From NCBI GenBank assembly GCA_034766995.1, contig CM068325.1, forward strand, positions 3,863,668 to 3,927,667: a DNA stretch of 64,000 nucleotides, read 5' to 3'. The DNA comes from Acanthacorydalis orientalis. Taxonomy: Eukaryota; Arthropoda; Insecta; Megaloptera; Corydalidae. The translations under genes and the position numbers were made by a program. Below the pieces are notes generated by a model, which was not told the origin of the DNA, did no database searches, and was given only the letters and a program-made list of their open reading frames with translations. Shown piece by piece: positions 1 through 29,421 of this stretch. Every line of letters begins with the position of its first letter. The first letter of the stretch is position 1.

Positions 1-22
1 ACCTGCAAAAAATACAGACATA

Positions 23-535
23 CTAAACCTGTGATTGAGTGCGACGCGCTCTTTTTCCACTCTCTGCCTCGATCGCCGTCTCGGACAGGAACCACACAAC
101 GGATCTACTACTGTACTGATATATACAGCCGGGCGGTCGTACGTCCGGTCCGATAATCAGGAAGCAAGCAAGCACTCCCGGGTGCCTCCCTCCTGCAGAG
201 CCACGACGCGCGCGCGACCGTGCGGGCCACCTGGACAGGAGGTCGAGGACGCACTCGAAGGTTCGAACGACACTCGGTGTTTCACTACTTTTCGCGCACA
301 CACAAATAAATATGGAAAAATCACTCTGTCTTAGACGGACGCGATACGGAGTTATTTTTGAAAAAACGACAAGGACGGACGATTCCGAGTCGTTTTTTGT
401 GAACGCGATCGGCAGCGGGTACCGAACCGGCGGACCGACGGACCGAACCGAGCCGGCGCGAGAGACGGACGAACGGTACGAGAAGGAATTCAGGATGCGC
501 TGCTGGGAAGAACCTAGGCTGGAAAGGAAAATCAT
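23..535 (-). CDS. Hypothetical ORF in left arm (170 codons)
   Basis: This open frame points outward, like the spliced arm gene, and matches the right-arm frame at 15532-16080. The protein is rich in Ser and Arg and I recognise no domain. The two copies differ at roughly seven residues, and most nucleotide differences change the amino acid, which does not suggest purifying selection. A splice-acceptor-like CAG lies just before the conserved part, so it may be an exon or untranslated region. Coding status is doubtful. Confidence 0.18.
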   Translation of the reverse strand: MIFLSSLGSSQQRILNSFSYRSSVSRAGSVRSVGPPVRYPLPIAFTKNDSESSVLVVFSKITPYRVRLRQSDFSIFICVCAKSSETPSVVRTFECVLDLLSRWPARSRARRGSAGGRHPGVLACFLIIGPDVRPPGCIYQYSSRSVVWFLSETAIEAESGKRARRTQSQV

Positions 536-786
536 TAGACATGGCGTACGCCATCACATGACAGATTAACGAACGGCACGCGACAAAGACTGCTGATTCG
601 ATCGACTCTCTTCGTCTGACACGAAGAGAGTTACATTTGATGAAAATGCTGAACTTTAAAAAAACATTTACAGTTTCCCGGTGCTATTCACAGAGGACCG
701 TTGTCTGTCAACATACGAACTCGGTGTCTCAAAGCGGACACAACTACAGGTATTTACAGCTAAACCCGGCGGCCCCTCGTGAAGAA

Positions 787-1030
787 TGACTGCCGGCCGG
801 ACGGCGCGCGACGTACCGCCGCCCGGCCCGGCCGAGGGCTCATCGCCTCACCCGCGCCGATGTTCCGACTGAACGATGCGTGGACATCAACGACTATGAA
901 TTACTGCCGGCGCTAGCACCACACCCCAGTGTGCGTACAGGCACAAGTACGGTGTCGACGGCGAACCGACGATCGTCCGCACGATGCCGCATCGCCCCGC
1001 CGATCCACCGGAACAAGTGTGACGACGAGC
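787..1030. repeat. Internal direct repeat, copy 1 (left arm)
   Basis: This segment recurs about 700 bp further on at 1502-1724 in the same orientation. Its mirror copies are at 15082-15326 and 14397-14620 in the right arm. This copy has about 25 extra bases of GC-rich sequence near its start. The strand pointing towards the spacer keeps one frame open through all four copies, but the opposite strand is open in several frames too, so I do not call it coding. Confidence 0.8.
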
Positions 1031-1501
1031 TCAAGAATGAAAATTTAGAAAAGTATTCAATCGACCGGATCGAAATTCGAACAGAGAGACGATTTCCGAA
1101 CACGATTGCAATCCGACGCCCGACTCTCGACTATGAATCCGGGGACCTGGACGAACACGTGGATGTCTAGAATCATGATCGAATCGCACTTTGTCTCGCG
1201 ACGTTCGCGCCTCCCCCGCTCAGCACACAAAACCATCGACGGATATCCTGCTCGATTTGCGGTGAACACATCGCTGCCTCGACACCTGCTCCTGGACGAA
1301 CACACGAGCAGGATAACACCTCAGGGAGGGCATCAACAGGAACCGTATGTGGGTGGGAGGACGCGAAATGAATTTAACCGAAACTACTCTGAACAGTGAA
1401 GGGAATTTACTTATTTTTCAAAAAAAAAAGATGAATAACTACAAAATACACGAAATGAAATCTACATTAATCTTCGTGAAAAGCGAACGCAAACAATTTA
1501 C

Positions 1502-1724
1502 ATGACTGACTGCCGGCCGGCCCGGCCGAGAGCTCATCGCCTCACCCACGCCGATGTTCCGACTGAACGATGCGTGGACATCAACGACTATGAATTACTG
1601 CCGGCGCTAGCACCACACCCCAGTGTGCGTACAGGCACAAGTACGGTGTCGACGGCGAACCGACGATCGTCCGCACAATGCCGCATCGCCCCGCCGATCC
1701 ACCGGAACAAGTGTGACGACGAGC
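1502..1724. repeat. Internal direct repeat, copy 2 (left arm)
   Basis: This is the second copy of the segment at 787-1030, nearly identical apart from the missing GC-rich insert. Because the pair occurs in both arms, the duplication came before, or was copied with, the arm duplication. Confidence 0.8.
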
Positions 1725-2416
1725 AACTCTCAAAAATTAATGCAAACAAAAGCTAAATCTAATCGAATGCTTGAAACGGATCAGCAAAGAATTAAACAAA
1801 AGAACGTTATGCGAAAATCGGTTAAATTTAAAAAAATCTCACTCGATCGTGGTACAAAGTGAAATTCAGCAAGAGAACAGTTACGCTACAGTTACTTGAA
1901 GCTACATCCTGACACTTGAATTCTGATCAAAGACTCTACAAAAAAAACACAATCAATTTCTACAACAAGGTAAACGGTACGAGGGGGCATGAGGAGCTGA
2001 AAATCATGTAAATTATACGAAAATCAATGATACTTAATGGTCGAATCACACGAAGTCCAGTTCGGCTGCAGGTACTGCTAGTAATCTGTACAGAGAGGAG
2101 TGAGGAAACTCCACATCCGTCACTCTAAAATGACAGCGGAACAGGGTCACAGAAGAATCTAAATGGGGGCGAATTTACATTCAGAAACGATTGAAATTTA
2201 GAAAAATCAAAGATAAATTAATTCACTTTAAATCTATACACAAATAACTTAATTGTAGACAGGGACTTGAAAATTATCAGCAATGAAATCAAACACTAGT
2301 GCAAGGTGTCTGTTAAAATTTCTACGGATTAAATCCGAAAAATTCAAAGCAAAATTAATGAGTTTAAAGATTATATGTGAAAAGAAAATCATTATGAACG
2401 AGGGCTCTAAAGTGAT

Positions 2417-3869
2417 TTACAAGAAATAAAAAATCAAATATAGAAAAACTGAATGAAATCTACAGGACTGATCGAGGATTCGAAGAATGGTACGGGGAGG
2501 ACGTTCGTGTTTCGACCGAGCTGAAAATCACATAAAATAAAACACAATAATGCTTAAAACACTCCTCGTACTCTGAAGAACATACCGCGTACTCGCCAGC
2601 AACGCCAGCAGCGTCCTTCGTTCCCTCGATGATCCGGAACCGAGATCTGGACGCGCGTGCCAGATCTTCGTCGCTTCAGGGCGAAGCGACAGACCGACAT
2701 CCGCTGCCGAAGCGGAAAACAACAAAAAAAAAAAAAACGCGGAACCGACCGGAAACGCGACGCGGATACACGACAGCCCATCGCACACACACACGCCCAC
2801 GCACACGGTCTCATCCACACGCCACGTCCTTTCGGTCGCCTCGTACGACGAGCAGGAAATACTGCGGCCGAATTCTGATCCCTGGCCGCAGGGATGCGTC
2901 TCCGACGTCGCTCCGTCGACGGTCAGCCCCATGTCCGTACGGTCGGGTCTTCGGAATCTCGTCCGGTGCATCGAACTCGGTGGACGCCGGCGATGATCTG
3001 AAACGCGAGACGGATCGTTCGAACGGGGATTTTTATAGGAGGCCTGTCGACGTATCTATGCAATTTTTGTCGTTCGAGATTGTTATTTGAAAGTAGGAAC
3101 GCCGATACGCCCAGCCAAATAAACACACACATTGAGCCTACGACCGCTATGCAACCGAACGCGCGCGTGCACGTCACAAAAATCGTGCGCGGCTGCGACG
3201 CCCACGCTTCGGCGTTACGAACGGCGGTGCAGAATCGAGAGCGGAAAAATCCGTTCGACCGAGCGCCGCACCGGTCGTTCGAGATCGGTCGTCGCGCCGG
3301 GACGCGACATCGACGCCAGATCTCAATTTACACGTTAGAACACAAGTTGACCGCCGCCGTATCGGCACGCGTACATCCACCGACCGTACACATCGACGTA
3401 ATGTGAAATCGTGAGAGAGAGAAAAACGTGACCCACCTGGTTTTGCCGGCGACGTCCGCACGTCGTTCCGCATCGCCGCAATAATATTTTCGCCGGACGT
3501 TCTCACAGCAGCGTCGAACACGCACACAAGTTCTCCGCACGACGTGTAGCACGGGCGACAGATCATCCGCGTCTGTTTTGTTGACCGACGCCAGCGTCTC
3601 CGAAGCGGCCGGCGCTGGCGGCGTGCGGCGGATTCCGCAGTCGCCGGAATCTATGAACAAATATGCGTTCGTTTCATTAAAAATGCACTGCAATCACAAT
3701 TGTTCGTCGATTGATTATCGAATAAACAGTATCCGCAGACACACACACGCTCACAGATTCGAATTTCGATTGAAAATTCGAACCGTTTCAGCGGAACACG
3801 ACACGCCGCCGTCTCTCTCAAATCCGATTTACACACTACACATATCGGATATGAATATGTATATATATT

Positions 3870-3901
<32 letters not shown>

Positions 3902-4136
3902 CATATATATTTATATATATATATATATATATTAGCGTGCGTGCGTGTGTCTGCACTGAAAACACATTCGACAACAATTCGAAACCGCACGCAAGTACTC
4001 ACATGCACTGGAGTAACACAAACGCACGCGTCGGCACCGACGCGTCACTTCGGCCGGCGAGACGATCCCGGCGCGTCACCACGGATTTAAACGCAGAACA
4101 CTTCGAAAAGGATACGACGCGGCGTCCGCACTCCAT
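2417..4136 (-). pseudogene. Left-arm copy of the five-exon arm gene, disrupted
   Basis: This is the mirror of the right-arm gene at 12219-13706. The start codon (4136-4134), exon 1 (to 4003, donor GTGAGT), exon 3 (2997-2847, the same 151 bases long, CAG acceptor, GTACGA donor) and the terminal region with stop near 2417 are all present. Exon 2 lies in the diverged block (about 3420-3652). In the frame set by exon 1 it hits a TGA after about 26 codons, although downstream residues similar to the right copy (a Thr/Met-Ser-Gly-Glu-x-Ile-Ile-Ala-Ala-Met-Arg motif) survive in another frame. The copy is therefore either a pseudogene or uses a different exon structure. Family unknown. Confidence 0.35.
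3850..3945. repeat. TA-rich microsatellite
   Basis: An imperfect (TA)n tract with interspersed TTTA and TGTA. A shorter counterpart is at 12423-12465 in the right arm, so the tract expanded or contracted after the arms separated. Confidence 0.9.
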
Positions 4137-4315
4137 GCGTGTCGAATATTCGCACGTCCGTGCATCTTCTACACACAGTTTGCACTCGCGGAGATGAGAT
4201 TTTCCACGCGAAAACACAAATTTTGCAGGACGATGACACGGGTGCGACCGCACGCGCTAACAACAATGGCGATTTGAAAAATATGAACGTCAATCGGTCG
4301 AGTAACCGAGATCGG

Positions 4316-4341
4316 CCGAGTGACGTCACAGCCTCACTCGG
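4316..4341. promoter_or_regulatory. Palindromic site with CRE core at the inner end of the left arm
   Basis: CCGAGTGA (4316-4323) and TCACTCGG (4334-4341) form an inverted repeat, and TGACGTCA (4321-4328) is a full cAMP-response-element type palindrome overlapping its left half. The mirror site is at 12015-12040. It lies about 200 bp upstream of the left-arm gene start, so it could serve in that promoter. Function is inferred from sequence only. Confidence 0.4.
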
Positions 4342-4350
4342 TAGACGTCC

Positions 4351-4362
4351 ATATATACATAT

Positions 4363-4460
<98 letters not shown>
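4351..4460. repeat. TA microsatellite at inner end of left arm
   Basis: Imperfect TA repeats mark the left edge of the single-copy spacer, mirroring the TA tract at 11872-12004 on the other side. Arm similarity stops here. Confidence 0.9.
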
Positions 4461-4639
4461 ATATAGACATGGATACAATAGACTTAACGATAAATTCAAA
4501 TATTCTATTCTTATTCTAGAGTCAGAACAAATTTTTCTTTGTCGAGATATGAACCTCTGTCTATAGGATAGTGTGACTATGGATTGCTGTGAAAATTCAT
4601 GAGATTAAACAAATGTACCTGTGTCGATATCTGAGCGTC

Positions 4640-5625
4640 CGTCTTAAGATTGTGTGTCTTTGTGTCTTACACAAAAAATCCGCAAAAATACAAGTTTTTC
4701 CTTCATAAAATATCCAAATCGTTACGAAACTGGCGACTATTACATACTGTTCGATTCGTATTTTAGTGTTATATATCATATATGAGACAATATTAACATC
4801 GTTTCATAATGGATACCGAAAAAGTCACAAAAACCGCGAAATACCCGCAAAAATACACGTTTTTCCTTCATAAAATATCCAAATCGTTACGAAACTGGCG
4901 ACTATTACATACTGTTCGATTCGTATTTTAGTGTTCTATATCATATATGAGACAATATTAACATCGTTTCATAATGGATACCGAAAAAGTCACAAAAACC
5001 GCGAAATACCCGCAAAAATACACGTTTTTCCTTCATAAAATATCCAAATCGTTACGAAACTGGCGACTATTACATACTGTTCGATTCGTATTTTAGTGTT
5101 ATATATCATATATGAGACAATATTAACATCGGTTCATAATGGATACCGAAAAAGTCACAAAAACCGCGAAATACCCGCAAAAATACAAGTTTTTCCTTCA
5201 TAAAATATCCAAATCGTTATAAAACTGGCAACTATTTCATACTGTTCGATTCGTATTTTAGTGTTCTATATGATATAGAAAACAAAATTAACATCGTTTC
5301 ATAATGGATACCGAAAAAGTTACAAAAACCGCGAAGTACCCGCAAAAATACACGTTTTTCCTTCATAAAATATCCAAATCGTTATGAAAATTGCAATTAT
5401 TTCATACTGTTCGATTCATATTTTGATGTTCAATTTGATATAGAAAACAAAATTAACATCGGTTTATAATGGATACCGAAAAAGTCACAAAAACCGCAAA
5501 AATACACGTTTCTCTTGCTCGAAATATCCAAATTGTTATGAAAATTACAACTATTCCGTACTGTTCGATTCGTATTTTGATGTTCTATATAATACCTAAG
5601 ACAAAATTAATTCTCTCTAATTACG
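4640..5625. repeat. 165-bp tandem satellite-like array (about 6 units)
   Basis: The marker CTTCATAAAA falls at 4701, 4866, 5031, 5196 and 5361, a strict period of 165 bp. A sixth unit follows after 153 bp because it lacks about 12 bases. The first four units are nearly identical and the later ones drift. Units contain GATACCGAAAAAGT and AAAATATCCAAATCGTTA. The length is close to a nucleosome repeat. The array lies about 800 bp upstream of the promoter of the two-Myb gene. Confidence 0.95.
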
Positions 5626-5779
5626 TGTTGGCTGACAAAACATTTTAATTTAATTACTTTATATCATGAAATTTTAAATACTTTTAAACGTATTTGTTTC
5701 ATCAATTACTCATGCCTCTTTGCATATATTTAATTAATAATACAAATAATTACAATTTTTGTTCAGTTCAGATTCAGAT

Positions 5780-5935
5780 GTTCACGTTTGATTCAGATGT
5801 CATTTCACGTGCTGTTGTTTCAGTGTTCATTGATATATTTTTTTATTAATTATCGTCAGTTATGTTGGATGATCCGAGTACTGGGTTCTGTACTAAATAC
5901 ATCTGAGCATGTGGTGTCAATATTTCATAAAAATC
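5780..5935. repeat. Direct repeat flanking the Myb gene (upstream copy)
   Basis: This segment resembles 10245-10400 downstream of the gene in the same orientation. Shared stretches include GTACTGGGTTCTGTAC and ATCTGAGCATGT. More diverged copies are at about 10065-10200 and 11140-11240. The Myb gene is therefore bracketed by copies of one repeat family. Confidence 0.7.
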
Positions 5936-5999
5936 GAGCCAAGAAATCGTCCTGTATGTCCGTGATAACTTTTAATTGAGATGGAAATATTTATATGTC

Positions 6000-6000
<1 letters not shown>

Positions 6001-6055
<55 letters not shown>
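6001..6055. repeat. TA microsatellite
   Basis: A nearly perfect (TA) run of about 54 bases between the upstream direct repeat and the promoter region of the Myb gene. Confidence 0.95.
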
Positions 6056-6057
<2 letters not shown>

Positions 6058-6426
6058 TTTGCATAAAATCAAAATAATCAAGTAGTCAAGTTAGTATCTA
6101 TTGGTTTTACTAGCATTGGTTCTGGAACGTTCGACCGTTAATGTGTTATAGAACCACTAGTGTAACGTCGAGCTGTTACGCGGACACGGCATCGCGACGA
6201 CAGTGAGACGGAAGATCGCGCACGCTTGCAGGGCGCATACGGTCTCTCGCTCGGAAACGCACGACGTTCGTTTTGTTACCTAAACGTTTTCGGCGCGACG
6301 CGCATACGAGACCCGTTACCGAACGCCGGCGTTCATGTCGCATCGGCGATTCGAAGCGATTGCGTAAGTCTCGTTCGTGTTTCAGATTCATTTTTCGGTT
6401 GTTACGAAACCGTTCCGTGCATGGAG

Positions 6427-6463
6427 TATAAATAGCGGCCGGCCGGCAGCGACGATATCAGTT
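6427..6463 (+). promoter_or_regulatory. TATA box and initiator of the two-Myb gene
   Basis: TATAAATA at 6427-6434 is followed by an arthropod-type initiator TCAGTT at 6458-6463, which would place transcription start at about 6460. The TATA-to-start distance (33 bp) is near the usual 30-31. The 240 bp upstream are GC-richer than the surroundings. The first ATG in frame with the spliced protein is at 6590, giving a 5' untranslated leader of about 130 bases. Confidence 0.65.
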
Positions 6464-6589
6464 CGAGAGTGTTTTATGGTCGGTATCGTTAGTGTTTGAT
6501 AAAGAATTTCAAAGTTTTCTTTTATTATTTTTGTATATATTTTTTTTTAATTTTTATAATTTCGTTTTGTATAGGTTAGCAATTGTAAA

Positions 6590-8617
6590 ATGGTTCGAAG
6601 GTAAGTGTTAACGTTTTACTTTTACTGTCGCCAAATATCTGTGTAAAATGTGATCGGTTCGAAAGTGAGGAACAATCTTGTGTTTTAGATTATATACCGA
6701 AGAGGAGGACGAAATGATCCTGGAGTACGTGCGGAACAGGCCCTTCGTCCTAAGAGGAAGAAGGGCCTGGGAGGACCTCCTGAGGGAGACCGTGAGTATT
6801 TATTTCACCGTCTACACGGCTCGCCGAAGGTCGGACGGGCACGTGACGTTCGTAACTTTTCAGGATCTGCGGCGTTCGTGGATGAGCGCCATGTCGCGCT
6901 TCAGGAATCGCATCCTTCCGCGTCTGGCGAGAAGACAATTCCGCAACATGCCAGACGCAGAGGCTCATGCGATCCTGAGGAGGTACGTGTCGTGCGGATG
7001 TCGACCGGAGATACGGTGTTTGCGATGCCGACGAGGAAGATTTATCGAAGTGCCGTTTTTGCAGGTACATGGGCTCATCCCCCCCGCCGCCGGAGCAGCC
7101 GGCAGGCGCCGAGCAGCAGTCGGCAGGCGCCGAGCAGCAGCCGGCAGGCGCCGAGCAGCAGCCGGCAGGCGCCGAGCAGCAGCCGGCAGGCGCCGAGCAG
7201 CAGCCGGCAGGCGCCGACGTCGGCAGCAGCACCACCACCAGCACCGGTGCGGCGCCCGGGAGAGAGGTGTTGAGAGGCCTCTTCCGGAACATCATACCTA
7301 GGTTGGTTGGACCGGAGGTTTTGGTTGACCAGACCGTGAGGGACGTCGAAGACATCATCGTCCCGGCGACCCCCGGCGACGACAGGATCTCTATGTCGAC
7401 ATCGGGGAGCGAGATGGCGGCGGCGACTCCGGTCGCGACGTCGGCCGAGGTCCTGGTGACCGGGGACGACGAGCGCGTCGCGAGCTACGGTCCGCTCGAC
7501 GTAGCGTTCCGTGGCTCCGACCGCAAGACAAGCGGGAGCGCGTCGGACGGTAAGAGGATCGCTCGAGCGTCGTGCCTTAACGACACTCGCGTGAACTATA
7601 CGATTTCGTTTCAGGTAGCAGCGACGGCGACGTCGCCGGTGCGGGGTTCATAAGGAGCACCGCGCCCCAGTATCAGCAGAGATACGGTAATTCGAAGGTA
7701 CGAGACAAACATGCCGGACGAGTTCGAACGAATCCTACTGTTTCAGATACGAGGCCCGATGAGCCCCAACCCGGCACGTCGAGAGACTGGCCTCCCGTGG
7801 CGCGGCCCGGCCCCCCGAAAGACGAGGCGCGGCCGGGCCCTTCGAAGCGGCCCGTCACGTCTGAGACCAGCTCTGCGGACGAGCCCGTCCCTGCGCTCCC
7901 GAGAGGTACGTGCGCGCGAAACGCCGTCGGCTTTCGCTCTCATATCTATTCGAAACTCCGATCGTCTCGGTCACTAAACGTGTGCGCTTTCCTCTTTTCC
8001 AGAACCACCCGTCGTCCCCAGGTCAAAGAAGTTGAGGATGCCAGGCACCAGGTGCGTGTTTCTGAGTCGTTCGATCCGAACGTTCGGTCGCGATTAACGC
8101 AGACCTGTTTTGTTTTTGTTTTCGTCGTGAAGGTACACGGAGGCCGAGGACAGCCTCCTCCTCGACCATGCGCTGCGGCGGATCTCCTCCGGCGATCCGG
8201 CCATCCAAACCAACAGGTTTTGGATGGAGCTGGTAACGGATGGCCGAATCGGTACGTATTGTTCGTGCGCGTCGTCCGATCCGCGTTCGGACGACTGGCC
8301 GGCCGAGTTTAAAACTGACGTTTCTATTCGTTTCAGGTCGCACCGCCGAGAGTATGCGGTTGAGGTTCCGAAATTACATCTTGCGGAACCTCGACCAATA
8401 CGACATTTCGGCGGCCAGCAGATGTCTGCTGCGGAGGTATCGTATCGTCCGGGCACGTTTCGGCGGACGGATCTCCGTTCTACGCGCGCGACGAACGGCC
8501 CGTCCGGCGGAGGCGGTCGTCGTCGCCGCGTCGAGAATGGAAGTCCGTCCGCAGAAGCGAACCGACGTTGACGCCAGTCTCTGTCTGTGCAGGAGATTCC
8601 CTAAACACCATCGGTAG
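6590..8617 (+). CDS. Ten-exon gene for a protein with two Rap1/TERF2IP-type Myb domains
   Basis: Exons are 6590-6600, 6689-6791, 6864-6982, 7065-7549, 7615-7686, 7747-7905, 8003-8051, 8133-8251, 8337-8436 and 8593-8617. All nine introns are GT-AG (60-156 bp) and the joined frame stays open for 413 residues. Residues about 5-79 match a Rap1-type Myb fold: the start YTEEED, a later AWEDL, then RRSWMSAMSRFRN. Residues about 333-406 repeat it (YTEAED, RFWMEL, RLRFRNYILRN), but the W of the last helix is replaced. Both domains end in LRR at a phase-2 intron. Between them lie a PAGAEQQ repeat (residues 90-128), a Pro-rich linker and a basic RSKKLR (323-328) that could be a nuclear signal. Known relatives bind telomeric DNA or Rap1/shelterin partners, and a role in DNA binding is inferred. 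It sits alone in the spacer between the palindrome arms. The gene model is strong; the exact function is unknown. Confidence 0.85.
7099..7215 (+). repeat. 21-bp coding minisatellite inside exon 4
   Basis: About 5.6 copies of a 21-base unit encode PAGAEQQ, with one Ser for Pro. The unit is a multiple of three, so copy-number change keeps the reading frame. It lies just after the first Myb domain and makes a flexible Pro/Ala/Gly/Gln linker. Confidence 0.95.
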
Positions 8618-8749
8618 GCCGCAGCGCTCCGGCCGACGTCGCCCGCCAAGGCGTGCGGGAAGCACGCGTCTGCAGTTCGAGTGCGGATCGCGTCGCCGAC
8701 AGTCAAGTTTTCAGTCGATCAGGAGATCGAGTACTCTTCACGTGCATGC

Positions 8750-9005
8750 TCATTTGTCTTGTAATTTTTATAGAGCACATTTTTTAATGTGCGATTCGTT
8801 TGTAATTTTTATACAGTCTGTTTTTGATGTACGGACGGTCTGTAATTTTTATATAAATTGTTATACAGTCTGTCTTTTGATGATCGAACGGTCTGTAATT
8901 TTTATACAGTCTGTTTTTTGATGTTCGGACGGTCTGTAATTTTTATATAAATTGTTATACAGTCTGCCTTTTGATGATCGGACGATCTGTAATTTTTATA
9001 TAGTA
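8750..9005. repeat. Alternating 41/53-bp tandem repeat after the Myb gene
   Basis: GTAATTTTTATA recurs at 8761, 8802, 8842, 8895, 8936 and 8989, giving spacings of 41, 40, 53, 41 and 53. The longer unit carries an extra piece ending in TTGTTATACAGTCTG. The array begins about 130 bp after the stop codon and probably lies in the 3' untranslated region or just beyond. I saw no AATAAA between 8618 and 9005. Confidence 0.85.
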
Positions 9006-9079
9006 AATGCTTACTTTATTTCGTATCTTTCACCTGGTTTTATTTTGTGGATTAACCTTAAGTCACAGAACGAGAGGAC

Positions 9080-9482
9080 TAGAGTATATATATATATGTG
9101 TATATTTATATATATATATATATGTGTGTATATTTATATATATATATATATATGTGTATTTATATATATGTGTATTTATATATATGTGTATTTATATATA
9201 TGTGTATTTATGTATATGTGTATTTATGTATATGTGTATTTATGTATATATATATTTATGTATATATATATTTATGTATATATATATTTATGTATATATA
9301 TATTTATGTATATATATATTTATGTATATATATATTTATGTATATATATATTTATGTATATATATATTTATGTATATATATATTTATGTATATATATATT
9401 TATGTATATATATATTTATGTATATATATATTTATGTATATATATATATATTTATGTATATATATATATATATATATATATT
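9080..9482. repeat. TA-rich array with a 16-bp unit
   Basis: Irregular TATATG repeats change into about 12 head-to-tail copies of a 16-base unit (TTTATGTATATATATA) from about 9245 to 9450, then pure TA. Long open frames of Tyr/Ile here are artefacts of the repeat. Confidence 0.95.
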
Positions 9483-10060
9483 TAAGCAGCAGGACCGTTT
9501 TCATACGAGAACCTCGAGAGGTTTGTATGTAGTGGTAGAAGAAGTATATTTGTTCACAAATATGCGTTGTGTCAGTGGGGCCGAGTCACAAGCGAGGAAT
9601 AACATGTTTCCGATTCGAATGTTCCGCAACGATGATAGTGAAAAGCAGAACGTGCGGCGCCCGTTCGAGGAGCGACGATTTGAACACGTCCTGGTCTAGA
9701 GTCGAAGTGACAGTTTCGAGTCCCCGCCGCTACGAACAGCTCGGCGTCTCGCTGCCCGTAAGTTTGTAGCGACTGTGGCGGTGAATAGTGAAACTATAGT
9801 ACACTTAGCGCGTAACAGAACCAGTATGAAAAATTGTGCGTCCGTGCGAAATAATCGGCGAACGGCAATCAGACTGACGGATTAGATTGTTTCACGCGAT
9901 TCCCACGGGGGTGGGGACTTCGACGCTGGTGCATTGTCGTGCCGGCGTCGTACTTTCGTGCGAATCCGAGTGCGTCGATTCGTACGCTACCTTCTGTAAA
10001 AATTCAGTCGAATTCTCTGTATCAGTACGGGTACAAGAACTGGTCGAATCCGCGACGATA
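9483..10060. other. Unique stretch in spacer, no firm gene
   Basis: GC-richer than its flanks. A 66-codon open frame (9569-9769, plus) runs into a good splice donor (GTAAGT at 9758), so a short exon is possible, but I recognise nothing in it and found no partner exon. Confidence 0.4.
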
Positions 10061-10400
10061 GCAGATCGGCAGCATGTTGTAATGTTAGTGCTCAGTAAAA
10101 TATTTTTTTTATTAATTATCGTCGATAATTTTAGAATATCTGAGTACTGAGATACATACTGATTATATCAGAGTATGTTTTGGCAAAAATCTGTTCAAAT
10201 CTAGCATGAAATGGGCCCTCTTGATCGATAGAAATTAAAGAAGACGTTCGATTCAGGTGTCATTTCATGTGTTGTGATCTCAGTGTTCAGTAATATATTT
10301 TTTCGTTAATTATTGTCAATTATGTTAGTCGATCTATGTACTGGGTTCTGTACCAAATATATCTGAGCATGTTGTGTCAATATTTTATAGTTTTACTGCC
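10060..10400. repeat. Two further copies of the direct repeat, 195 bp apart
   Basis: Copies of the 5780-5935 segment occur here: a diverged one (AGTGCTCAG at 10087) and a closer one (AGTGTTCAG at 10282), spaced 195 bp. Another diverged copy is near 11164. The stretch 10400-11330 otherwise shows no gene. Confidence 0.65.
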
Positions 10401-10537
10401 ATTAGTTTGGTCAAATTGCACTTTGAAAGCCTCACAGCTAGGTAGTGCCACTCACTGCACTATTCCCCTTGCAATCCGTTTGAATTTGTCCAGATTATGT
10501 GTACTTAATGATTATTAATGAACTTTATTTTAATTTA

Positions 10538-10542
<5 letters not shown>

Positions 10543-10583
<41 letters not shown>

Positions 10584-10655
10584 ATGTATATATATGTATA
10601 TACATATATATATATATATATAATTTACATACATACAATACATATATATGTATAT
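10543..10655. repeat. TA microsatellite
   Basis: Two TA runs separated by TGTGTGTATG and short TACATA pieces. No gene nearby. Confidence 0.9.
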
Positions 10656-11334
10656 ACAACAGCCGTTTACGAAGAAATCTGTCAAAAAGCGACTAACGGT
10701 TAAAACCTTATTCGATATTCGAACGCGCTCAGCTCTTAGATTCGTTTAAGAATGTGAGTTTTTTCAGACGCCGAAACCGTACCATACAAGTATCACACGA
10801 AACGTACGATTGTTTCAAATAATCTCCCATCGAAACGATTAGAATGTTCGAATCGACGATCCGTTTTCATTGTTCTCTTAAATCAAGAATTCTTTAATTA
10901 ATCGCTAATTGCGGCCTTAGTCACTGGTCGAAAATTACGAAAAAAATATATATTATAGAGAATTTCACGCTCTTTCGAATGGTCCAACGTGCAGTCTTCT
11001 ATCTGTGGCCACTGGACAAGATTTGAGCGTGTGATTTCATAGAGCTTGTATCCGAGTATCACGTATCGAGATTTGATTCGAATCGAACAAGGAACACGCC
11101 CTGTGAATCGATCGAATTGAGAGATGACGACTGATCGATTGCAAGCATGATACGTTGTAATCGCAGTGTTCACGATTCTGCTAATTACTGTCGATTGTTC
11201 GAGCTGGTCCGTGTGAGTGAACTCAAGCAGTATATATTTCGGTTTAATGTGTCAGTTGTTTAGTCGAAACAGGACTAGAAACACTCCTCGAGTTTCAGTT
11301 AAAATTGAAATCAGCTAAAGTCACGATATTCATT

Positions 11335-11835
11335 CAGTGAAGCCCAAACACTCTATCGTAAGGGTCGAGATCATATCTCGGTGCAGAGACATCTATTTAG
11401 AGTCGAGAATTTTTACAGCAAGGTACAAACACTTTATCTTAAGACACAGGTTCATATCTCGACACTGCGACATTCGTTTGGGCTCGAGGATTTTTACAGC
11501 AAAATCCGGAATGTCTATCGTAAGACACGGGCTCAGATCCCGATACAGGAACATCTCTTCAGACTCGAGAATTTTGATAGTAAAGTCCGAACACTCTATC
11601 ATAAGATATAAGCTCAGATCCCGACACAGGAGGACGTTTTTTATACTCTTAGAATTTTTACAGCGAGGTGCAAACACTTTATCCTAAGAAACAGGCTCAG
11701 GTCTTGACACACGGTCGTCCGTTTAGACTCACGAATTTTTATCGAAAAATCTGGACACACTATCGTAAGACACAGGCTCAGATCTCGACACAGGAACATT
11801 CGTCTAGACTCAAGAATCAGAATGGAATATTGGAA
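11335..11835. repeat. 81-bp tandem array (about 6 units)
   Basis: The TCTATCGTAAG-like marker falls at 11352, 11433, 11514, 11595, 11678 and 11759, an 81-bp period with one 2-base slip. Because 81 is a multiple of three, two frames stay open over several units, each repeating a motif like RLENFYSKV every 27 codons. There is no start context or neighbouring exon, so I treat it as a minisatellite rather than a gene. Confidence 0.9.
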
Positions 11836-11871
11836 TTTATCGTAAAGTCAATTGAAACGAGCGAAATCCAT

Positions 11872-11945
11872 TCCCATATATATATGTATACATATATATA
11901 TATATATATATATACATATATGTATACATATATAAATATGTATAC

Positions 11946-12004
<59 letters not shown>
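11872..12004. repeat. TA microsatellite at inner end of right arm
   Basis: Imperfect TA repeats with TGTATACATA interruptions close the single-copy spacer on its right side. Confidence 0.95.
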
Positions 12005-12009
<5 letters not shown>

Positions 12010-12014
12010 GTCCA

Positions 12015-12040
12015 CCGAGTGAGGCTGTGACGTCACTCGG
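12015..12040. promoter_or_regulatory. Palindromic site with CRE core at the inner end of the right arm
   Basis: CCGAGTGA (12015-12022), TCACTCGG (12033-12040) and TGACGTCA (12028-12035) mirror the left site at 4316-4341. It lies about 180 bp upstream of the arm-gene ATG. No TATA box is evident close by. Confidence 0.4.
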
Positions 12041-12218
12041 CCGATCTCGGTTTCTCGACCGATTGACGTTCAAATATTTCAAGTCGCCATTGTTGTTAGC
12101 GCGCGCGGTCGCACCGCGTCATCGTCCTGCAAAATTTGTGTTTTCGCGTCGAAAATCTCGTCTCCGCGGGTGCAAACTGTGTGTAGAACACGCACGGACG
12201 TGCGAATATTCGACACGC

Positions 12219-13706
12219 ATGGAGTGCGGACGCCGCGTCGTGTCCTTTTCGAAGTGTTCCGCGTTTAAATCCGTGGTGACGCGCCGGGATCGCCTCGCCG
12301 GCCAAAGTGACGCGTCGGTGCCGACGCGTGCGTTTGTGTTACTCCAGTGCATGTGAGTACTTGCGTGCGGTTTCGAATTGTTGTCGAATGTGTTTTCAGT
12401 GCAGACACACGCACGCACGCAAATATATATATATATATATAAATATATATGTATATATATATATTCATATTCAATCCGATATGTGTAGTGTGTAAATCGG
12501 ATTGGAAAGGGACGGCGGCGTGTCGTGTTCCGCTGAAACGGTTCGAATTTTCAATCGAATTTCGAATCTGCGAGCGCGTGTGTGCCTGCGGATATTGTTC
12601 ATTCGAAAATCAATCGACGAACAATTGTGATTTCAGTGCATTTTTTATGAAACTAACGCATATTTGTTGACAGATTCCGGCGATTGCGGAATCCGCCGCA
12701 CGTCGCCATCGCCTGCAACTTCGAAGATTGTGGCGTGGGTCAACTGATGTCGAAAACTTACGTGTGTTTCGACGCTGGGAAAATGTCCGGAGAAGATATC
12801 ATTGCGGCGATGCGGACGGACGTCGCCGGCGAACACGGGTGGGTCTCGTTTCTCTTTCTCGACATCAATTTCCCTCAGTAGGCTTTGCCGCAGCGCACGG
12901 TATCTATAAAAATCGGTTGCGCGTTTGGTTGCATAGCGGTCGTAGGGGTAATGTGTGTGTTTTTTTTTTGGCTTGCATATCGGCGTTTCTACTTCCAAAT
13001 ATATATATATATATATATATAGACTGTGGAATACGTGCAAATAATACTTCCCAGCGATCAAATTGCATAGATACGTCGACCGGCCTCCTATAAACTTCTT
13101 TGTTCGAACGATCCGTCTCGCGTTTCAGATCGTCGCCGGCGTCCACCGAGTTCGATGCACCGGACGAGACTCCGAAGCCCCGACCGTACGGACGTGCGGC
13201 TGACCGTCGACGGAGCGACGTCGGAGACGCATCCCTGCGGCCGGGGATCAGAATTCGGCCGCAGTATTTCCTGCTCGTCGTAAGAGGCGACCGAAAGGAC
13301 GTGGCGTGTGGATGAGACCGTGTGCGTGGGCGTGTGTGTGTGTGCGATGGGCTGTCGTGTATCCGCGTCGCGTTTCCGGTCGGTTCCGCGTTTTCTTTTG
13401 TTGTTTTCCGCTTCGGCAGCGGATGTCGGTCCGTCGCTTCGCCCTGAAGCGACGAAGATCTGGCTCGCGCGTCCAGATCTCGGTTCCGGATCATCGAGGG
13501 AACGAAGGACGCTGCTGGCGTTGTCGGCGAGTACGCGGTATGTTCTTCAGAGTACGAGGAGTGTTTTAAGCATTGTTGTGTTTTATTTTATGTGATTTTC
13601 AGCTCGGTCGAAACACGAACGTCCTCCCCGTACCATTCTTCGAATCCTCGATCAGTTCTGTAGATTTCATTCAGTTTTTCTATATTTGATTTTTTATTTC
13701 TTGTAA
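12219..13706 (+). CDS. Possible five-exon gene of unknown family (right arm)
   Basis: Exons 12219-12352, 12674-12838, 13129-13279, 13420-13537 and 13603-13706 have GT-AG junctions (donors GTGAGT, GTGGGT, GTAAGA, GTATGT) and join into one 223-residue frame. I do not recognise the protein. It is Arg-rich, has scattered Cys residues including CNFEDC in exon 2 and CWRC in exon 4, a Pro/Asp/Glu stretch in exon 3 and a hydrophobic end. Upstream of the ATG the same frame is open without a start. GC-rich sequence leaves other frames open in some exons, so the evidence is the four coherent junctions, not any domain. It is transcribed away from the spacer. It may be a non-coding transcript instead. Confidence 0.4.
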
Positions 13707-14396
13707 ATCACTTTAGAGTCCTCGTTCATAATGATTTTCTTTTCACATATAATCTTTAAACTCGTTAATTTTGCTTTGAATTTTCCGGATTTAAATCCGT
13801 AGAAATTTTAACAGACACCTTGCACTAGTGTTTGATTTCATTGCTGATAATTTTCAAGTCCCTGTCTAGTATTTAATTATTTGTGTATAGATTTAAAGTG
13901 AATTAATTTATCTTTGATTTTTCTAAATTTCAATCGTTTCTGAATGTAAATTCGCCCCCATTTAGATTCTTCTGTGACCCTGTTCCGCTGTCATTTTAGA
14001 GTGACGGATGCAGAGTTTCCTCACTCCTCTCTGTACAGATCACTAGCAGTACCTGCAGCCGAACTGGACTTCGTGTGATTCGACCATTAAGTATCATTGA
14101 TTTTCGTATAATTTACATGATTTTCAGCTCCTCATGCCCCCTCGGACCGTTTACCTTGTTGTAGAAATTGATTGTGTTTTTTTTGTAGAGTCTTTGATCA
14201 GAATTCAAGTGTCAGGATGTAGCTTCAAGTAACTGTAGCGTAACTGTTCTCTTGCTGAATTCCACTTTGTACCACGATCGAGTGAGATTTTTTTAAATTT
14301 AACCGATTTTCGCATAACGTTCTTTTGTTTAATTCTCTGCTGATCCGTTTCAAGCATTCGATTAGATTTAGCTTTTGTTTGCATTAATTTTTGAGA

Positions 14397-14620
14397 GTTG
14401 CTCGTCGTCACACTTGTTCCGGTGGATCGGCGGGGCGATGCGGCATTGTGCGGACGATCGTCGGTTCGCCGTCGACACCGTACTTGTGCCTGTACGCACA
14501 CTGGGGTGTGGTGCTAGCGCCGGCAGTAATTCATAGTCGTTGATGTCCACGCATCGTTCAGTCGGAACATCGGCGTGGGTGAGGCGATGAGCTCTCGGCC
14601 GGGCCGGCCGGCAGTCAGTC
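14397..14620. repeat. Internal direct repeat (right arm, inner copy)
   Basis: Mirror of 1502-1724. It repeats at 15082-15326 in this arm. The segment contains CGGCCGGGCCGGCCGGC next to an AT-rich flank. Confidence 0.8.
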
Positions 14621-15081
14621 ATGTAAATTGTTTGCGTTCGCTTTTCACGAAGATTGATGTAGATTTCATGTAGTTATTTGCATTTTTTTTTTTGAAAAAT
14701 AAGTAAATTCCCTTCACTGTTCAGAGTAGTTTCGGTTAAATTCATTTCGCGTCCTCCCACCCACATACGGTTCCTGTTGATGCCCTCCCTGAGGTGTTAT
14801 CCTGCTCGTGTGCTCGTCCAGGGGCAGGTGTCGAGGCAGCGATGTGTTCACCGCAAATCGAGCAGGATATCCGTCGATGGTTCTGTGTGCTGAGCGGGGG
14901 AGGCGCGAACGTCGCGAGACAAAGTGCGATTCGATCATGATTCTAGACATCCACGTGTTCGTCCAGGTCCCCGGATTCATAGTCGAGAGTCGGGCGTCGG
15001 ATTACAATCGTGTTCGGAAATCGTTTCTCTGTTCGAATTTCGATCCGGTCGATTGAATACTTTTCTAAATTTTCATTCTTG

Positions 15082-15326
15082 AGCTCGTCGTCACACTTGT
15101 TCCGGTGGATCGGCGGGGCGATGCGGCATTGTGCGGACGATCGTCGGTTCGCCGTCGACACCGTACTTGTGCCTGTACGCACACTGGGGTGTGGTGCTAG
15201 CGCCGGCAGTAATTCATAGTCGTTGATGTCCACGCATCGTTCAGTCGGAACATCGGCGCGGGTGAGGCGATGAGCCCTCGGCCGGGCCGGGCGGCGTACG
15301 TCGCGCGCCGTCCGGCCGGCAGTCAT
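15082..15326. repeat. Internal direct repeat (right arm, outer copy)
   Basis: Mirror of 787-1030, with the extra GC-rich piece near its end. Between the two copies, 14808-15056 is open in one plus-strand frame (82 codons, conserved in the left arm), with no recognisable domain. Confidence 0.8.
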
Positions 15327-15531
15327 TCTTCACGAGGGGCCGCCGGGTTTAGCCGTAAATACCTGTAGTTGTGTCCACTTTGAGACACCGAGTTCGTATG
15401 TTGACAGACAACGGCCCTCTGTGAATAGCACCGGGAAACTGTAAATGTTTTTTAAAGTTCAGCATTTTCATCAAATGTAACTCTCTTCGTGTCAGACGAA
15501 GAGAGTCGATCGAATCAGCAGTCTTTGTCGC

Positions 15532-16080
15532 GTGCCGTTCGTGGTTCGATGGCGTCCGCCATGTCTAATGATTTTCCTTTCCAGCCTAGGTTCTTCCCAG
15601 CAGCGCATCCTGAATTCCTTCTCGTACCGTTCGTCCGTCTCTCGCGCCGGCTCGGTTCGGTCCGTCGGTTCGCCGGTTCGGTACCCGCTGCCGACCGCGT
15701 TCACAAAAAACGACTCGGAATCGTCCGTCCTTGTCGTTTTTTCAAAAATAACTCCGTATCGCGTCCGTCTAAGACAGAGTGATTTTTCTATATTTATTTG
15801 TGTGTGCGCGAAAAGTAGTGAAACACCGAGTGTCGTTCGAACCTTCGAGTGCGTCCTCGACCTCCTGTCCAGGTGGCCCGCACGGTCGCGCGCGCATCGA
15901 GGCTCTGCAGGAGGGAGGCACCCGGGAGTGCTTGCTTGCTTCCTGATTATCGGACCGGACGTACGACCGTCCGGCTGTATATATCAGTACAGTAGTAGAT
16001 CCGTTGTGGGGTTCCTGTCCGAGATGGAGATCGAGGCAGAGAGTGGAAAAAGAGCGCGTCGCACTCAATCACAGGTTTAG
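15532..16080 (+). CDS. Hypothetical ORF in right arm (182 codons)
   Basis: Outward-facing frame matching 23-535 in the left arm. A CAG acceptor-like site follows a pyrimidine tract near 15582, and a second one lies at 16098-16100 after the stop. The product is Ser/Arg/Val-rich with no domain I recognise. The differences from the left copy mostly alter residues, so there is no sign of selection on the protein. Confidence 0.2.
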   Translation: MPFVVRWRPPCLMIFLSSLGSSQQRILNSFSYRSSVSRAGSVRSVGSPVRYPLPTAFTKNDSESSVLVVFSKITPYRVRLRQSDFSIFICVCAKSSETPSVVRTFECVLDLLSRWPARSRAHRGSAGGRHPGVLACFLIIGPDVRPSGCIYQYSSRSVVGFLSEMEIEAESGKRARRTQSQV

Positions 16081-16102
16081 TATGTCTGTATTTTTTGCAG
16101 GT

Positions 16103-17150
16103 GAAGAGGGGTTTAGTTAAGCATTATTAGAACTGTTCATTGTCGTATGTCAGCTTTGAACCCGCGTTTTTCTCACGTGCTAGGGGTTTCAGTCGCGCAC
16201 CGAAAAGGGAGGGACTCGTCGTCTGGAGTAGTCTCGCCTAAGCGCCTAGCGTATAAGAGACGTTGCGACTCCCGACGGTGGAACGGCAGGGCGTGACCTG
16301 CCCCGGCACCCGTGCTGTCGATGCGGGCACTCGCCTCAGTCGTCGTGCTGTTGAGCGATCCCCGCGCCAGCGCTCTTGTCGTTGAGCGGTCACCGTCCCA
16401 GTCCGACCATCGGCCGGATGAAAAGATATCGGCGACGAATGCAGGGCGGGCCGGTCGCCGAACGATCGTGTGTCGGCCGGCCCGCAGTCCGACGTTTCTT
16501 AAAAACGTCCACTAGCTCAGGTCACTCTCGATCATATCCGATACGGACTGTTTTAATCCCTTGACAGTCTGCTCGCAGAGCCGCGACCGTACCACGCCGA
16601 CCGGCGTCCCGGAACGCGTGCGGTGCGATCTGACCCATTCCCGGTGAAGTCACAAGCCGGGGTGCGTTCGGATCTCAACGCGTGCGCTTCGGGTCACCAT
16701 TGCACCGGCGTACCACGGTCGATGCGCTTCCTCCGTGGTTTTTTTTAGTCATTTACATTTTGCAGCCCGATCCTTCCGTTGACCGATCGGGTCACCCCCG
16801 CGAATCCGGCACGCTATCGATCCGTATCTAGCTGTGCATAAGAGGACACGTCCCGTACCCGACCGCGGCTAACCTTAGCTTCAGTCAGAGCCTCGGGTGC
16901 AAATCAGGACCTGCGGGGTACCGTCGCCACGTTGTCTTCGGACGGAGCGTGCGCTGGGCGACGGCGGGAGGCCGGCCTCCCGTCCGTCCCCCATAAAGGT
17001 AGTCCGCAGGATTTAGGATTTGGTACGGGTCTTTCAGGTCGTCGTGTGAGATTTATCGACGCGGGACGACGCGGGATTCTCGACGTGGGATTCAGAAGCG
17101 ACGAGGTCGCTAGGTGTTTGTGAGTCGGTGTGGTGTTTCCGAACGAGTCG
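16103..17150. other. GC-rich block of unknown origin next to the right arm
   Basis: Markedly GC-rich compared with the DNA that follows, with no open frame above about 67 codons. Two TATA-like spots (GTATAAGAGA near 16251, GCATAAGAGG near 16837) are present. It could be the 5' untranslated part of a truncated non-LTR retroelement, a promoter-type region or more of the repeat unit. No reverse transcriptase or other coding signature is visible. Confidence 0.4.
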
Positions 17151-26210: not shown

Positions 26211-27089
26211 ATTAATAAGCTCATCGAGTTCTAATTTTATGCGAATCCGTTGCGAGATTGCATCGAAGGAATGTGTATTTTTTTACGGTTTCATCCCGTT
26301 TCCCTGTACTTTTTTTCCACACTACCCGAGTGATAATAAAAGTGTCTGGAGTATCGGAGATCCGATCGAAACTCGAATCGTGGCGCGGACATTTCATGCG
26401 CGAGCGTTCGGCCGCCGGATCGACCGATATCGGTCCGGAATCCGGCCCTGTCGCCGCGCAATGATTACATTGAAACTTTATAAATCGAATCAAATAAACT
26501 TTGAGCCGTTCGAACGCCGGAAAATTGTTTAAAGATAAAGTGCGCGCGTCCGTTGTTTCACATTTCGGGATACGGTCGCGCGCGACAGAGACAGACCGAC
26601 GGCCGGGGGTCCTTTCCTCGCTTCCCGCTTCGACGAAAAAAAATGTGAAAAAGAGAACGGCGGCCGCCCGTACGCCCGCGCCGACCGTACAATAAACGTT
26701 CAGCGCAAAGTTTTGCAGTTACTTGCCGAACGGTGTACGCTTTTTATTGCTCGAAATTTTCGCATTCGCCGTACGGGGCGGATTTGTATGCGCGTGTGTG
26801 TGTGTCAGAGGGACAGGGACTCGGGATGGGGACGACGCGGTCCGGACGGTGTGCACGATTATACTCGAACGTGTGCGTTCGTTCTGTTCCGGAACTGATA
26901 ACGGGCCGATTTCACGCACGGGCGGCTGTTTCGGGTCCGGACCGTTCTTTGAACAGGATCCGGTCGTTCGAACAGTTCACAGGACCACCCGTCCGACACA
27001 CACACACACACACAGATAGGACGGACGACTCGACGACCTCGGCTCGAAACCGAGATCGTCGAGGAACACACAATCGATAGGAGACAAAC
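26210..27089. other. Unique part of the last DIP intron
   Basis: GC-richer, with a CA run at 26996-27015 and CpG-rich stretches. No further exon recognised. Antisense and sense open frames up to 130 codons overlap the neighbouring exon and are shadows. Confidence 0.5.
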
Positions 27090-27260
27090 CGTAGAGTCGT
27101 ATGTTCCCCTCGGCGTCGCCGATCGAGTTCTTCGAGATGCACCTGTACCCGCCGAGATCCGATCTGTGCAGCTTCTTGATCGTCAGCTTCATCTGGACGC
27201 TGTAGTAGGACAGGTTGTTCTCGCTCATCTCGTACTTGTCGTTCGATATGATCATTTCGC
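27090..27260 (-). CDS. DIP-family gene, second half of Ig domain 3
   Basis: A 171-base exon with CAG acceptor and GTTTGT donor, in phase 1 at both ends. It encodes the part from GEMIISNDKYEMSE to NIRLY, with the characteristic DLGGYRCISKNS around the second Cys of the Ig fold. It pairs with the Cys in the preceding exon (TLQCHVEAS). An NLS sequon (N-glycosylation type) is present at ENNLSYY. Confidence 0.95.
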
Positions 27261-27299
27261 CTGTCGGAGGAGAGAAAATCGTTACAGTTGCCGTGATTG

Positions 27300-28190
27300 A
27301 ACACATATACAGTTAAAACATGTATTAAAAGTTCTTAGTTTATCCAAAATCACGGTCCAATTTCTATAAATTGCTTAGTAGTGTACGAAATTCATAACAA
27401 GGAAAAATCGTTGAACGATTCAGTCTAGACTCATTTTAATTGTGATTCGGCCTGTATTTATATCATCTTACAAATAATTTAAGTAACTGTTCAACAGATA
27501 GACATGTAACTAAGATATTCAAGTCTTAAATTGTCCCAAAGTCAGTGTCGAATTTCCGTTAATCGGTTCGTAGTGGACGAAAGAGAAAACAATGAAATGT
27601 CGTTTAACGATTCACTGTAGACGCATTTTAATTGTGATTCAGCCTGTATTTATATCATCTCACAAATAATTTAAGTAACTATTTAACAGATAGACATGTA
27701 ACTATGATATTCAAATCTTAAATTGCCCCAAAGTCAGTGTAGAACTTCCATTAATCGCTTAGTAATCGATGAAAGACAGAACAGGGAAAAATCGTTTAAC
27801 GATTCAGTCTAGACTTATTTCAATTGAGAATTAGCCTGCAATTTTACCGTTTTACAAATAATTAAAGTAACTGTTCAACAGATAGATATGTAAATAAGAT
27901 ATTTAAGTCTTAAACTGATTCAAAATCAGTGTCGAATTTCCGTTAATCGGTTCGTAGTGGACGAAAGACAAAACAATGAAATGTCGTTTAACGATTCACT
28001 GTAGACGCATTTTAATTGTGATTCAGCCTGTATTTATATCATCTTACAAATAATTTAAGTAACTATTTAACAGATAGACATGTAACTATGATATTCAAAT
28101 CTTAAATTGTCCCAAAGTCAGTGTAGAACTTCGATTAATCGCTCAGTAGTCGATGAAAGACAGAACAGAACACTCAGAGTCTTCTTCGAG
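27300..28190. repeat. 192-bp tandem array between Ig3 exons
   Basis: A GTTTAACGATTCA-type marker recurs at 27410, 27602, 27794 and 27986, exactly 192 bp apart. Units contain ATTTATATCATCTTACAAAT and CCATTAATCG. The first unit begins within about 40 bp of the Ig3 exon. Confidence 0.95.
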
Positions 28191-28273
28191 CTCTGCGTTT
28201 GACTAAAACGAACGATCGGACCAAAAAAAAAACATATTAGATGTTTTCCGGATCAGCGAACGGAAGGACTCAC

Positions 28274-28393: not shown

Positions 28394-28439
28394 CTGGAAC
28401 GAGATCGGAAATTTATGAGAGAGAGAGCGCGTCTCTGTT

Positions 28440-29354: not shown

Positions 29355-29421
29355 CTGCTCGTTCGAAACGACATGAGTGCATTGCGCCGCGCGCGTTCCC
29401 GAAGGACGAACGCATACTTAC

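What the first reader, a model, noticed from the sequence alone, without database searches (positions are those of the whole stretch)
1..16102. Long palindrome: two 4.1-4.35-kb inverted arms around a 7.65-kb spacer
The arms match in reverse complement from 1 paired with 16102 to the TA tracts at 4351 and 12004. Arms this long and this similar are unusual for ordinary insect DNA transposons. They fit an ampliconic palindrome kept alike by gene conversion, a giant foldback-type element or an unknown mobile unit. The spacer holds a well-formed gene unrelated to the arms.
Basis: partly seen in the sequence, partly recalled or inferred. Interest (0 to 1): 0.8.

Follow-up and report, generated by a model that had tools for sequence, protein, structure and literature searches.

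The report
Two copies of a chromosome-bound repeat
The long "palindrome" is two copies, lying head to head, of a large DNA unit that has spread dozens of times along two small chromosomes of this arthropod genome together with a DNA-binding protein gene; the arms resemble each other because the whole family does, not because the pair is a special hairpin element.

Summary
The inverted arms are real but longer than reported: the left arm starts about 1.84 kb outside the window and the right arm ends near 17963, so arms are about 6.0-6.5 kb. Similarity is patchy: 98.2%, 75.8%, 93.7%, 70.8% in four blocks. The arms belong to a multicopy family: of 40 loci scored (423 candidates) for window 1-2000, 37 lie on contig C13 (9.5 Mb, smallest of 13 large contigs), 2 on C2, 1 on C12. 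Among 12 copies the two arms are not sisters; each is closer to copies 0.16-3.9 Mb away. Flanking blocks occur in all four combinations, so copies have exchanged segments. Arm-to-arm conversion and a foldback transposon are not supported. The spacer gene (hand-built model, 10 exons, 413 aa, two Rap1-type Myb domains) belongs to the same duplicon: the 150 listed matches to it (169 reported) all lie on C12 and C13. Best reading: an interspersed, chromosome-restricted duplicon, laid out like the primate LCR16a core duplicon, here carrying Rap1-Myb genes. How it spreads, and what arms and protein do, is inferred.

The parts
1..4350 (-). Left arm (continues about 1.84 kb outside the window): modules O2-O-A2-A1-B(left type)-C, putative promoter end at 4350
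12005..17963 (+). Right arm: modules C-B(right type)-A1-A2-O-O2, outer end about 17963
3023..3624 (-). Block B, left subtype: 75.8% to the right arm, but 96.4-97.9% to c4445 and p35L (tested over 3082-3800)
12466..12900 (+). Block B, right subtype: 94.9-96.8% to five other copies (p35R, c3705, c489, c7739, c14)
4321..4328 (-). CRE-like motif TGACGTCA near the inner end of the left arm
12028..12035 (+). CRE-like motif TGACGTCA near the inner end of the right arm; present in 9 of 11 copies of block C examined
815..1030 (-). 216-bp repeat, copy 1 within block A of the left arm
1509..1724 (-). 216-bp repeat, copy 2 within block A of the left arm
4351..4465 (.). TA tract at the inner end of the left arm
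11876..12005 (.). TA tract at the inner end of the right arm
4680..5610 (.). 165-bp tandem array (5.7 copies), shared with the palindrome at C13:3.55 Mb
6590..8619 (+). Ten-exon gene, 413 aa, two Rap1-type Myb domains; exon borders chosen by hand, all nine introns GT-AG, one open frame to the stop
11389..11817 (+). 81-bp tandem array next to the right arm, also next to arms in c1, c489 and c7739

Best explanation
The feature is an inverted pair of two separate members of a large interspersed duplicon. The duplicon consists of a Rap1-type Myb gene or its remains, satellite arrays, and a non-coding 'arm' that begins at a conserved block with a CRE motif. It recurs along C13, as scattered copies and as direct neighbours 14.9-23.5 kb apart, and parts of it (gene and inner arm block) recur in the first 3.3 Mb of C12. 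Shown: copy number (as a lower bound), chromosome restriction of the scored copies, non-sister arms, recombinant copies. Inferred: copies spread by segmental duplication (unequal exchange or duplicative insertion) and stay alike by exchange between loci; the inverted arrangement formed once and was then duplicated (a second palindrome at C13:3.55 Mb has the same left and right B subtypes with a centre of about 0.38 kb); the Myb protein is the probable working part, presumably a DNA-binding protein; the arm may be transcribed outward as non-coding RNA.
For: Arm family: 37 of 40 scored loci on C13. Block C/B: of 40 main loci 22 on C13, 17 on C12, 1 on C2. Myb gene: 150 listed matches of 169 reported, all on C12 or C13, grouping into about 38 places at a 5-kb gap. 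Control stretch window 46000-48000 is single copy. Arms not sisters: ownL-ownR 96.7%, ownL-c4445 98.2%, ownR-p35R 98.3%, with a 100% bootstrap branch between them. All four O/B subtype combinations among copies. Tandem unit of about 18.9 kb at C13:1-20000. Second palindrome with matching B subtypes. Window gene intact; dN/dS 0.21-0.29 in the Myb domains against L076 and L080.
Against: Copy counts are lower bounds: 40 of 423, 40 of 548 and 101 of 339 candidates were scored. Trees of blocks A1 and A2 alone are poorly resolved (14 of 18 supports under 80). The second palindrome's left arm has the other O subtype, so 'duplicated once' needs a later exchange. dN/dS against L081 is 0.49-0.69, and L076 and L080 have stops or odd splice borders under the borders used, so purifying selection on the window gene is likely, not proven. 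The window gene runs parallel to its right arm, while most Myb pieces in c1, c489 and c7739 run antiparallel, so a further rearrangement is needed. No reads, expression or related species were available.
Confidence: 0.8

Rival explanations
1. Ampliconic palindrome whose two arms are kept alike by arm-to-arm gene conversion.
For: Arms share 98.2% over 3 kb next to a 75.8% block, with a sharp edge; multicopy, chromosome-restricted.
Against: Arms are not sisters. The divergent block B is a subtype shared with other loci, not an unconverted remnant. Similar likeness (left arm to c7739 97.6%, 3.9 Mb away) holds between distant loci. Blocks A1 and A2 alone do not resolve the question.
Confidence: 0.08
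2. Giant foldback or long-TIR mobile element.
For: A second inverted pair with the same arms exists at C13:3.55 Mb; copies are dispersed, and a few lie on C2 and C12.
Against: 10 of 12 close pairs are direct. No transposase or reverse transcriptase domain in six frames of 12004-17000, of the spacer, or of C13:1-9998. Best direct match near the two outer ends is an 8-mer, not at the junctions. 37 of 40 scored loci on 1.7% of the genome is unusual for a transposon.
Confidence: 0.06
3. Assembly artefact: one arm exists, the other was added at the TA tracts.
For: Arms meet TA tracts, a known trouble spot (recalled); some sampled C13 stretches read N, which may be gaps or withheld DNA.
Against: Arms differ by 54 substitutions in 2995 columns plus a 24% divergent block, and belong to different subfamilies; no N in the window; the arrangement recurs at 3.55 Mb.
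Confidence: 0.05

Closest known systems
LCR16a / NPIP core duplicon of primates (PMC7419210; abstract and Background section read)
   Same: A core of about 20 kb, interspersed along one chromosome arm in particular, carrying a gene family and joined to other duplicated segments.
   Different: Arthropod genome; gene is a Rap1-type Myb; window gene shows dN/dS below 1, not the positive selection reported for NPIP; a non-coding arm and satellites are part of the unit.
Human Y-chromosome palindromes (PMC3723533; search listing and start of abstract seen)
   Same: Long inverted repeats with high similarity and evidence of exchange.
   Different: Here exchange is among many dispersed copies; the arms of the pair are not each other's closest relatives.
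Rap1 / TERF2IP telomere proteins (Pfam PF08914 Myb_Rap1)
   Same: Rap1-type Myb domains, above the Pfam cut-off for the whole protein.
   Different: Two such domains; no BRCT or other Rap1 domain in the Pfam listing of the 413-aa model; about 38 places in the genome.

Membership tests
Interspersed core-duplicon family (LCR16a type) | A shared core of about 20 kb at many interspersed sites, mostly on one chromosome | tested here: met
   37 of 40 scored arm loci on C13 in 25 clusters; direct neighbours 14.9-23.5 kb apart; unit about 18.9 kb at C13:1-20000. Inner block and gene also common on C12
Interspersed core-duplicon family (LCR16a type) | Mosaic structure from different duplicated segments | tested here: met
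   All four O/B subtype combinations; divergent O2 types
Interspersed core-duplicon family (LCR16a type) | Encodes a gene family, often under positive selection | tested here: inconclusive
   Gene family yes. dN/dS 0.21-0.69 for the window gene against three copies; above 1 only in two middle-region comparisons between other copies (L076-L080 1.70, L081-L082 1.08), on few changes
Interspersed core-duplicon family (LCR16a type) | Core is transcribed | not testable with these tools
   No RNA data
Ampliconic palindrome with arm-to-arm conversion | Arms more alike to each other than to any other copy | tested here: not met
   (12 copies)
Foldback / long-TIR DNA transposon | Terminal inverted repeats at both ends of dispersed copies | tested here: not met
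   2 inverted of 12 close pairs among 37 C13 loci
Foldback / long-TIR DNA transposon | Target-site duplication | tested here: not met
   Only an 8-bp match near, not at, the two ends of this pair; other copies not tested
Foldback / long-TIR DNA transposon | Transposase, own or related | tested here: inconclusive
   None, but these scans also missed the intron-split Myb domain, and only parts of the family were scanned
Rap1/TERF2IP protein family | Rap1-type Myb domain | tested here: met
   PF08914 37.8 bits, E 2.7e-9, cut-off 27.1, two stretches; each domain alone is below the cut-off (23.9 and 21.4 bits)
Rap1/TERF2IP protein family | BRCT and C-terminal interaction domain, telomere binding | tested here: not met
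   No such Pfam family listed for the 413-aa protein; binding not testable. That these domains define Rap1 is recalled

The most novel reading that the evidence does not exclude
The duplicon is a chromosome-marking system: dozens of C13 copies, spread evenly along the chromosome, supply both a chromosome-specific non-coding RNA or DNA landing sites and a Rap1-Myb protein that binds them, so that the smallest chromosome is recognised, insulated or driven as a unit, in the way that the fly dot chromosome and X have their own repeats and binding proteins (recalled analogy).
Probability: 0.06. Interest if true: 0.85.

Novelty: new member of a known kind. Interest (0 to 1): 0.45.

Why it matters
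It turns an apparent giant hairpin into an interspersed duplicon concentrated on two small chromosomes, with sequence evidence of exchange between copies up to megabases apart. The core duplicon I read about is a primate one (PMC7419210); a paper search for 'core duplicon' plus 'insect' returned 7 papers, none with a title about an insect core duplicon (titles and starts of abstracts seen only). A Rap1-type Myb gene family of about 38 places, with listed matches only on C12 and C13, raises a testable question about what such proteins bind. It also warns that high arm similarity alone does not show palindrome gene conversion.

Tried and rejected
Coding arms: longest frames in block A 176 and 199 aa, against a simulated median of 147 and 95th percentile of 207; no consistent excess of synonymous changes; no Pfam domain in 12004-17000. 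tRNA and Rfam: none in the window. Protein database search for the Myb protein: one hit, to an unrelated protein through the low-complexity AGAEQQP repeat; the first Myb domain alone found nothing; PDB gave only weak matches, best E 0.017 to transcription factor WER, a Myb protein. Pfam PF08914 searched against the genome by family found nothing and rang in none of 14 controls; I put this down to the domain being split by introns. B chromosome idea: argued against, because the DIP-alpha-like gene in the window has its only full match on C13, other matches being at most 74% and partial (PDB match DIP-alpha E 1.6e-47). Taking blocks B and D as 'unconverted' remnants that date the pair was considered after and dropped when one search showed that B is a subtype shared with other loci. 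Paper searches on palindromes, Rap1 in Hymenoptera, segmental duplication, TGAGGG telomeres and Rap1 family expansion showed no direct precedent in their listings; of these only listings were seen. The organism was not identified; an arthropod is inferred from the DIP gene, and my first guess of Hymenoptera from CpG content was left open.
Full report
Observation. BLAST of the window against itself confirms inverted similarity: 1-3164 with 16102-12919 at 95.4% (gaps counted) and 3415-4650 with 12860-11681 at 81.9%. A segmentation of the arm alignment gives four blocks: L1-3022 98.2% (54 differences in 2995 columns), L3023-3624 75.8%, L3625-4406 93.7%, L4407-4694 70.8%. The TA tracts at 4351 and 12004 are the inner end of high similarity.

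Base 1 is only the window edge. The window is C13:3863668-3927667 of a 548-Mb, 27-contig assembly with 13 large contigs of 62.3 to 9.5 Mb; C13 is the smallest of these and C12 (19.8 Mb) the next. With upstream DNA fetched, the left arm begins near -1837 and pairs with 17963, so each arm is about 6.0-6.5 kb.

A family, not a pair. Window 1-2000 searched in its own genome gave 423 candidates, 40 scored: 37 loci on C13, 2 on C2, 1 on C12. C13 is 1.7% of the genome. The 37 loci form 25 clusters whose positions do not differ from uniform along C13 (KS p 0.73). Of 12 neighbouring pairs closer than 30 kb, 10 are direct (14.9-23.5 kb apart) and 2 inverted: this one and C13:3552636/3562121. The inner arm block (12006-13000) gave 548 candidates, 40 scored: 22 main loci on C13, 17 on C12 between 0.38 and 3.2 Mb, 1 on C2. 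So the outer arm is nearly C13-only among scored loci, while the inner block is shared with C12. A control stretch of the window (46000-48000) is single copy.

The arms are not sisters. In an alignment of 12 copies over about 3.4-4.1 kb, the left and right arm are 96.7% alike; the left arm is 98.2% to c4445, the right arm 98.3% to p35R and 98.2% to c3705; a branch with 100% bootstrap separates them. By block: O2 types are about 29-30% apart, B types about 20-24%, O types about 7-8%, while block A is 95-98% to the right arm in every copy but one (c513, 91.6% in A1). O and B types occur in all four combinations: L/L (left arm, c4445), R/L (p35L), R/R (right arm, p35R, c3705), L/R (c489, c7739, c14). 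This is a four-gamete pattern: copies have exchanged segments. The three other copies are left out of this count (c4184 and c5563 gave no B match in the fetched DNA; c513 has a third B type, 72.7% to the right arm). Trees of A1 and A2 alone are weakly resolved. The drop in similarity at block B, which could have been read as the edge of a conversion tract between the arms, is thus a difference between subfamilies.

The second palindrome. C13:3551559-3565160 has the same left (B-left, 165-bp array) and right (B-right) subtypes, arms 97.0% alike over 4.2 kb, but a centre of about 0.38 kb without the gene. I infer that the inverted arrangement arose once and was duplicated, with later gain or loss of the central gene; against a simple copy, its left arm has the other O subtype.

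The unit. At C13:1-20000 the contig begins inside a unit that repeats after about 18.9 kb (120-1037 matches 18977-19945 at 88.4%). Module maps of the fetched stretches show gene 5' modules, Myb exon pieces, the 81-bp array and then the arm in c1, c489 and c7739. There the Myb pieces run opposite to the arm, except a 140-bp first-exon piece at 76% that appears twice in the c489 stretch, and the five aligned first-domain pieces all carry the same in-frame stop. The window copy runs parallel to its right arm. The other five fetched stretches show no Myb exon match in the DNA held.

The gene. Ten exons from 6590 to 8619 chosen by hand, nine GT-AG introns, 413 codons to a stop. Pfam Myb_Rap1: 37.8 bits, E 2.7e-9, two stretches. 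In the genome 169 exon matches were reported (101 of 339 candidates scored) and 150 listed: 101 on C12 (0.137-3.23 Mb), 49 on C13 (0.386-9.29 Mb), none elsewhere, about 38 places at a 5-kb gap. Of ten copies fetched and translated with exon borders carried over from the window gene, three C12 copies (L081, L082, L085) stay open for 368-375 codons, two C12 copies (L076, L077) give identical proteins with a stop at codon 378 and non-GT borders after exons 8 and 9, and five have earlier stops; first-exon borders are uncertain in all ten and the last acceptor is not AG in five. dN/dS of the window gene against L076 and L080 is 0.21-0.29 in the Myb domains and 0.62-0.69 between them; against L081 it is 0.49-0.69 throughout. 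This is consistent with purifying selection on the window gene but does not prove it.

Arms: what they may do. No Pfam family in six frames of 12004-17000, no Rfam family in the window. Near its TA tract the arm has a block holding TGACGTCA in 9 of 11 copies and GCCATTGTTG in 9 of 11. The outward strand is T-rich through most of the arm (AT skew up to 0.27 in absolute value in 1-kb windows, near zero at the outermost kilobase; 2-kb windows elsewhere in the window range from -0.05 to 0.14). Outward transcription from this block is an inference.

Mobile element? No transposase or reverse transcriptase domain (a method that also missed the intron-split Myb domain), no target duplication at this pair, and scored copies nearly confined to C13 and C12 with a small island on C2. 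C13 does not look like a B chromosome: the DIP-alpha-like gene has its only full match here.

Comparison. The closest described kind I know is the core duplicon LCR16a, a 20-kb unit interspersed along human 16p that carries the NPIP genes (PMC7419210, abstract and Background read). The layout is alike; transcription is untested here and positive selection is not shown. I file it as a likely new member of that general kind, in an arthropod, with an unusual gene.

Noticed in passing
window 4680-63605 (13 arrays starting at 4680, 20143, 25207, 27362, 30451, 34171, 35812, 37986, 41587, 52573, 54146, 58437, 62949): Thirteen tandem arrays of 2-6 copies with periods of 165-193 bp, several unlike each other in sequence, as if arrays of nucleosome length form repeatedly.
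   Followed up: no
C13 versus C1-C12: C13 looks richer in G+C: 39.5% in 6460 sampled bases (33.4% in a second 1500) against 25.1% in 12000 and 26.8% in another 3600 bases from C1-C12; C12's first 3.3 Mb gave 39.6% in 1250 bases against 30.3% in 1500 further on. Small samples; C12's start and C13 may share an origin.
   Followed up: partly
L050, L052 (C1 and C2 starts): The first bases of C1 and C2 hold CCCTCA (TGAGGG) repeats, not the usual insect TTAGG (recalled); the printed parts of the C1 end, both C12 ends and the C13 end did not show it, and the C3 start read N.
   Followed up: partly
C2:56175645-56179064: A C2 copy has the same scores as the one at C13:11986-15406, suggesting a very recent copy between chromosomes or an assembly duplication.
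   Followed up: no
C12:1022268-1023739 (+), 1069774-1071245 (-), 2745859-2747330 (+): Three Myb copies with identical scores, two of them inverted about 48 kb apart; two of the three were translated and are identical (L076, L077).
   Followed up: partly
window 26980-41500 (-): Exons of a DIP-alpha-like immunoglobulin cell-adhesion gene; the 29228-30064 piece matches Drosophila DIP-alpha; the others were seen by eye only.
   Followed up: partly
L051 (C1 end): The last bases of C1 look like the start of a histone H3 gene (read by eye).
   Followed up: no
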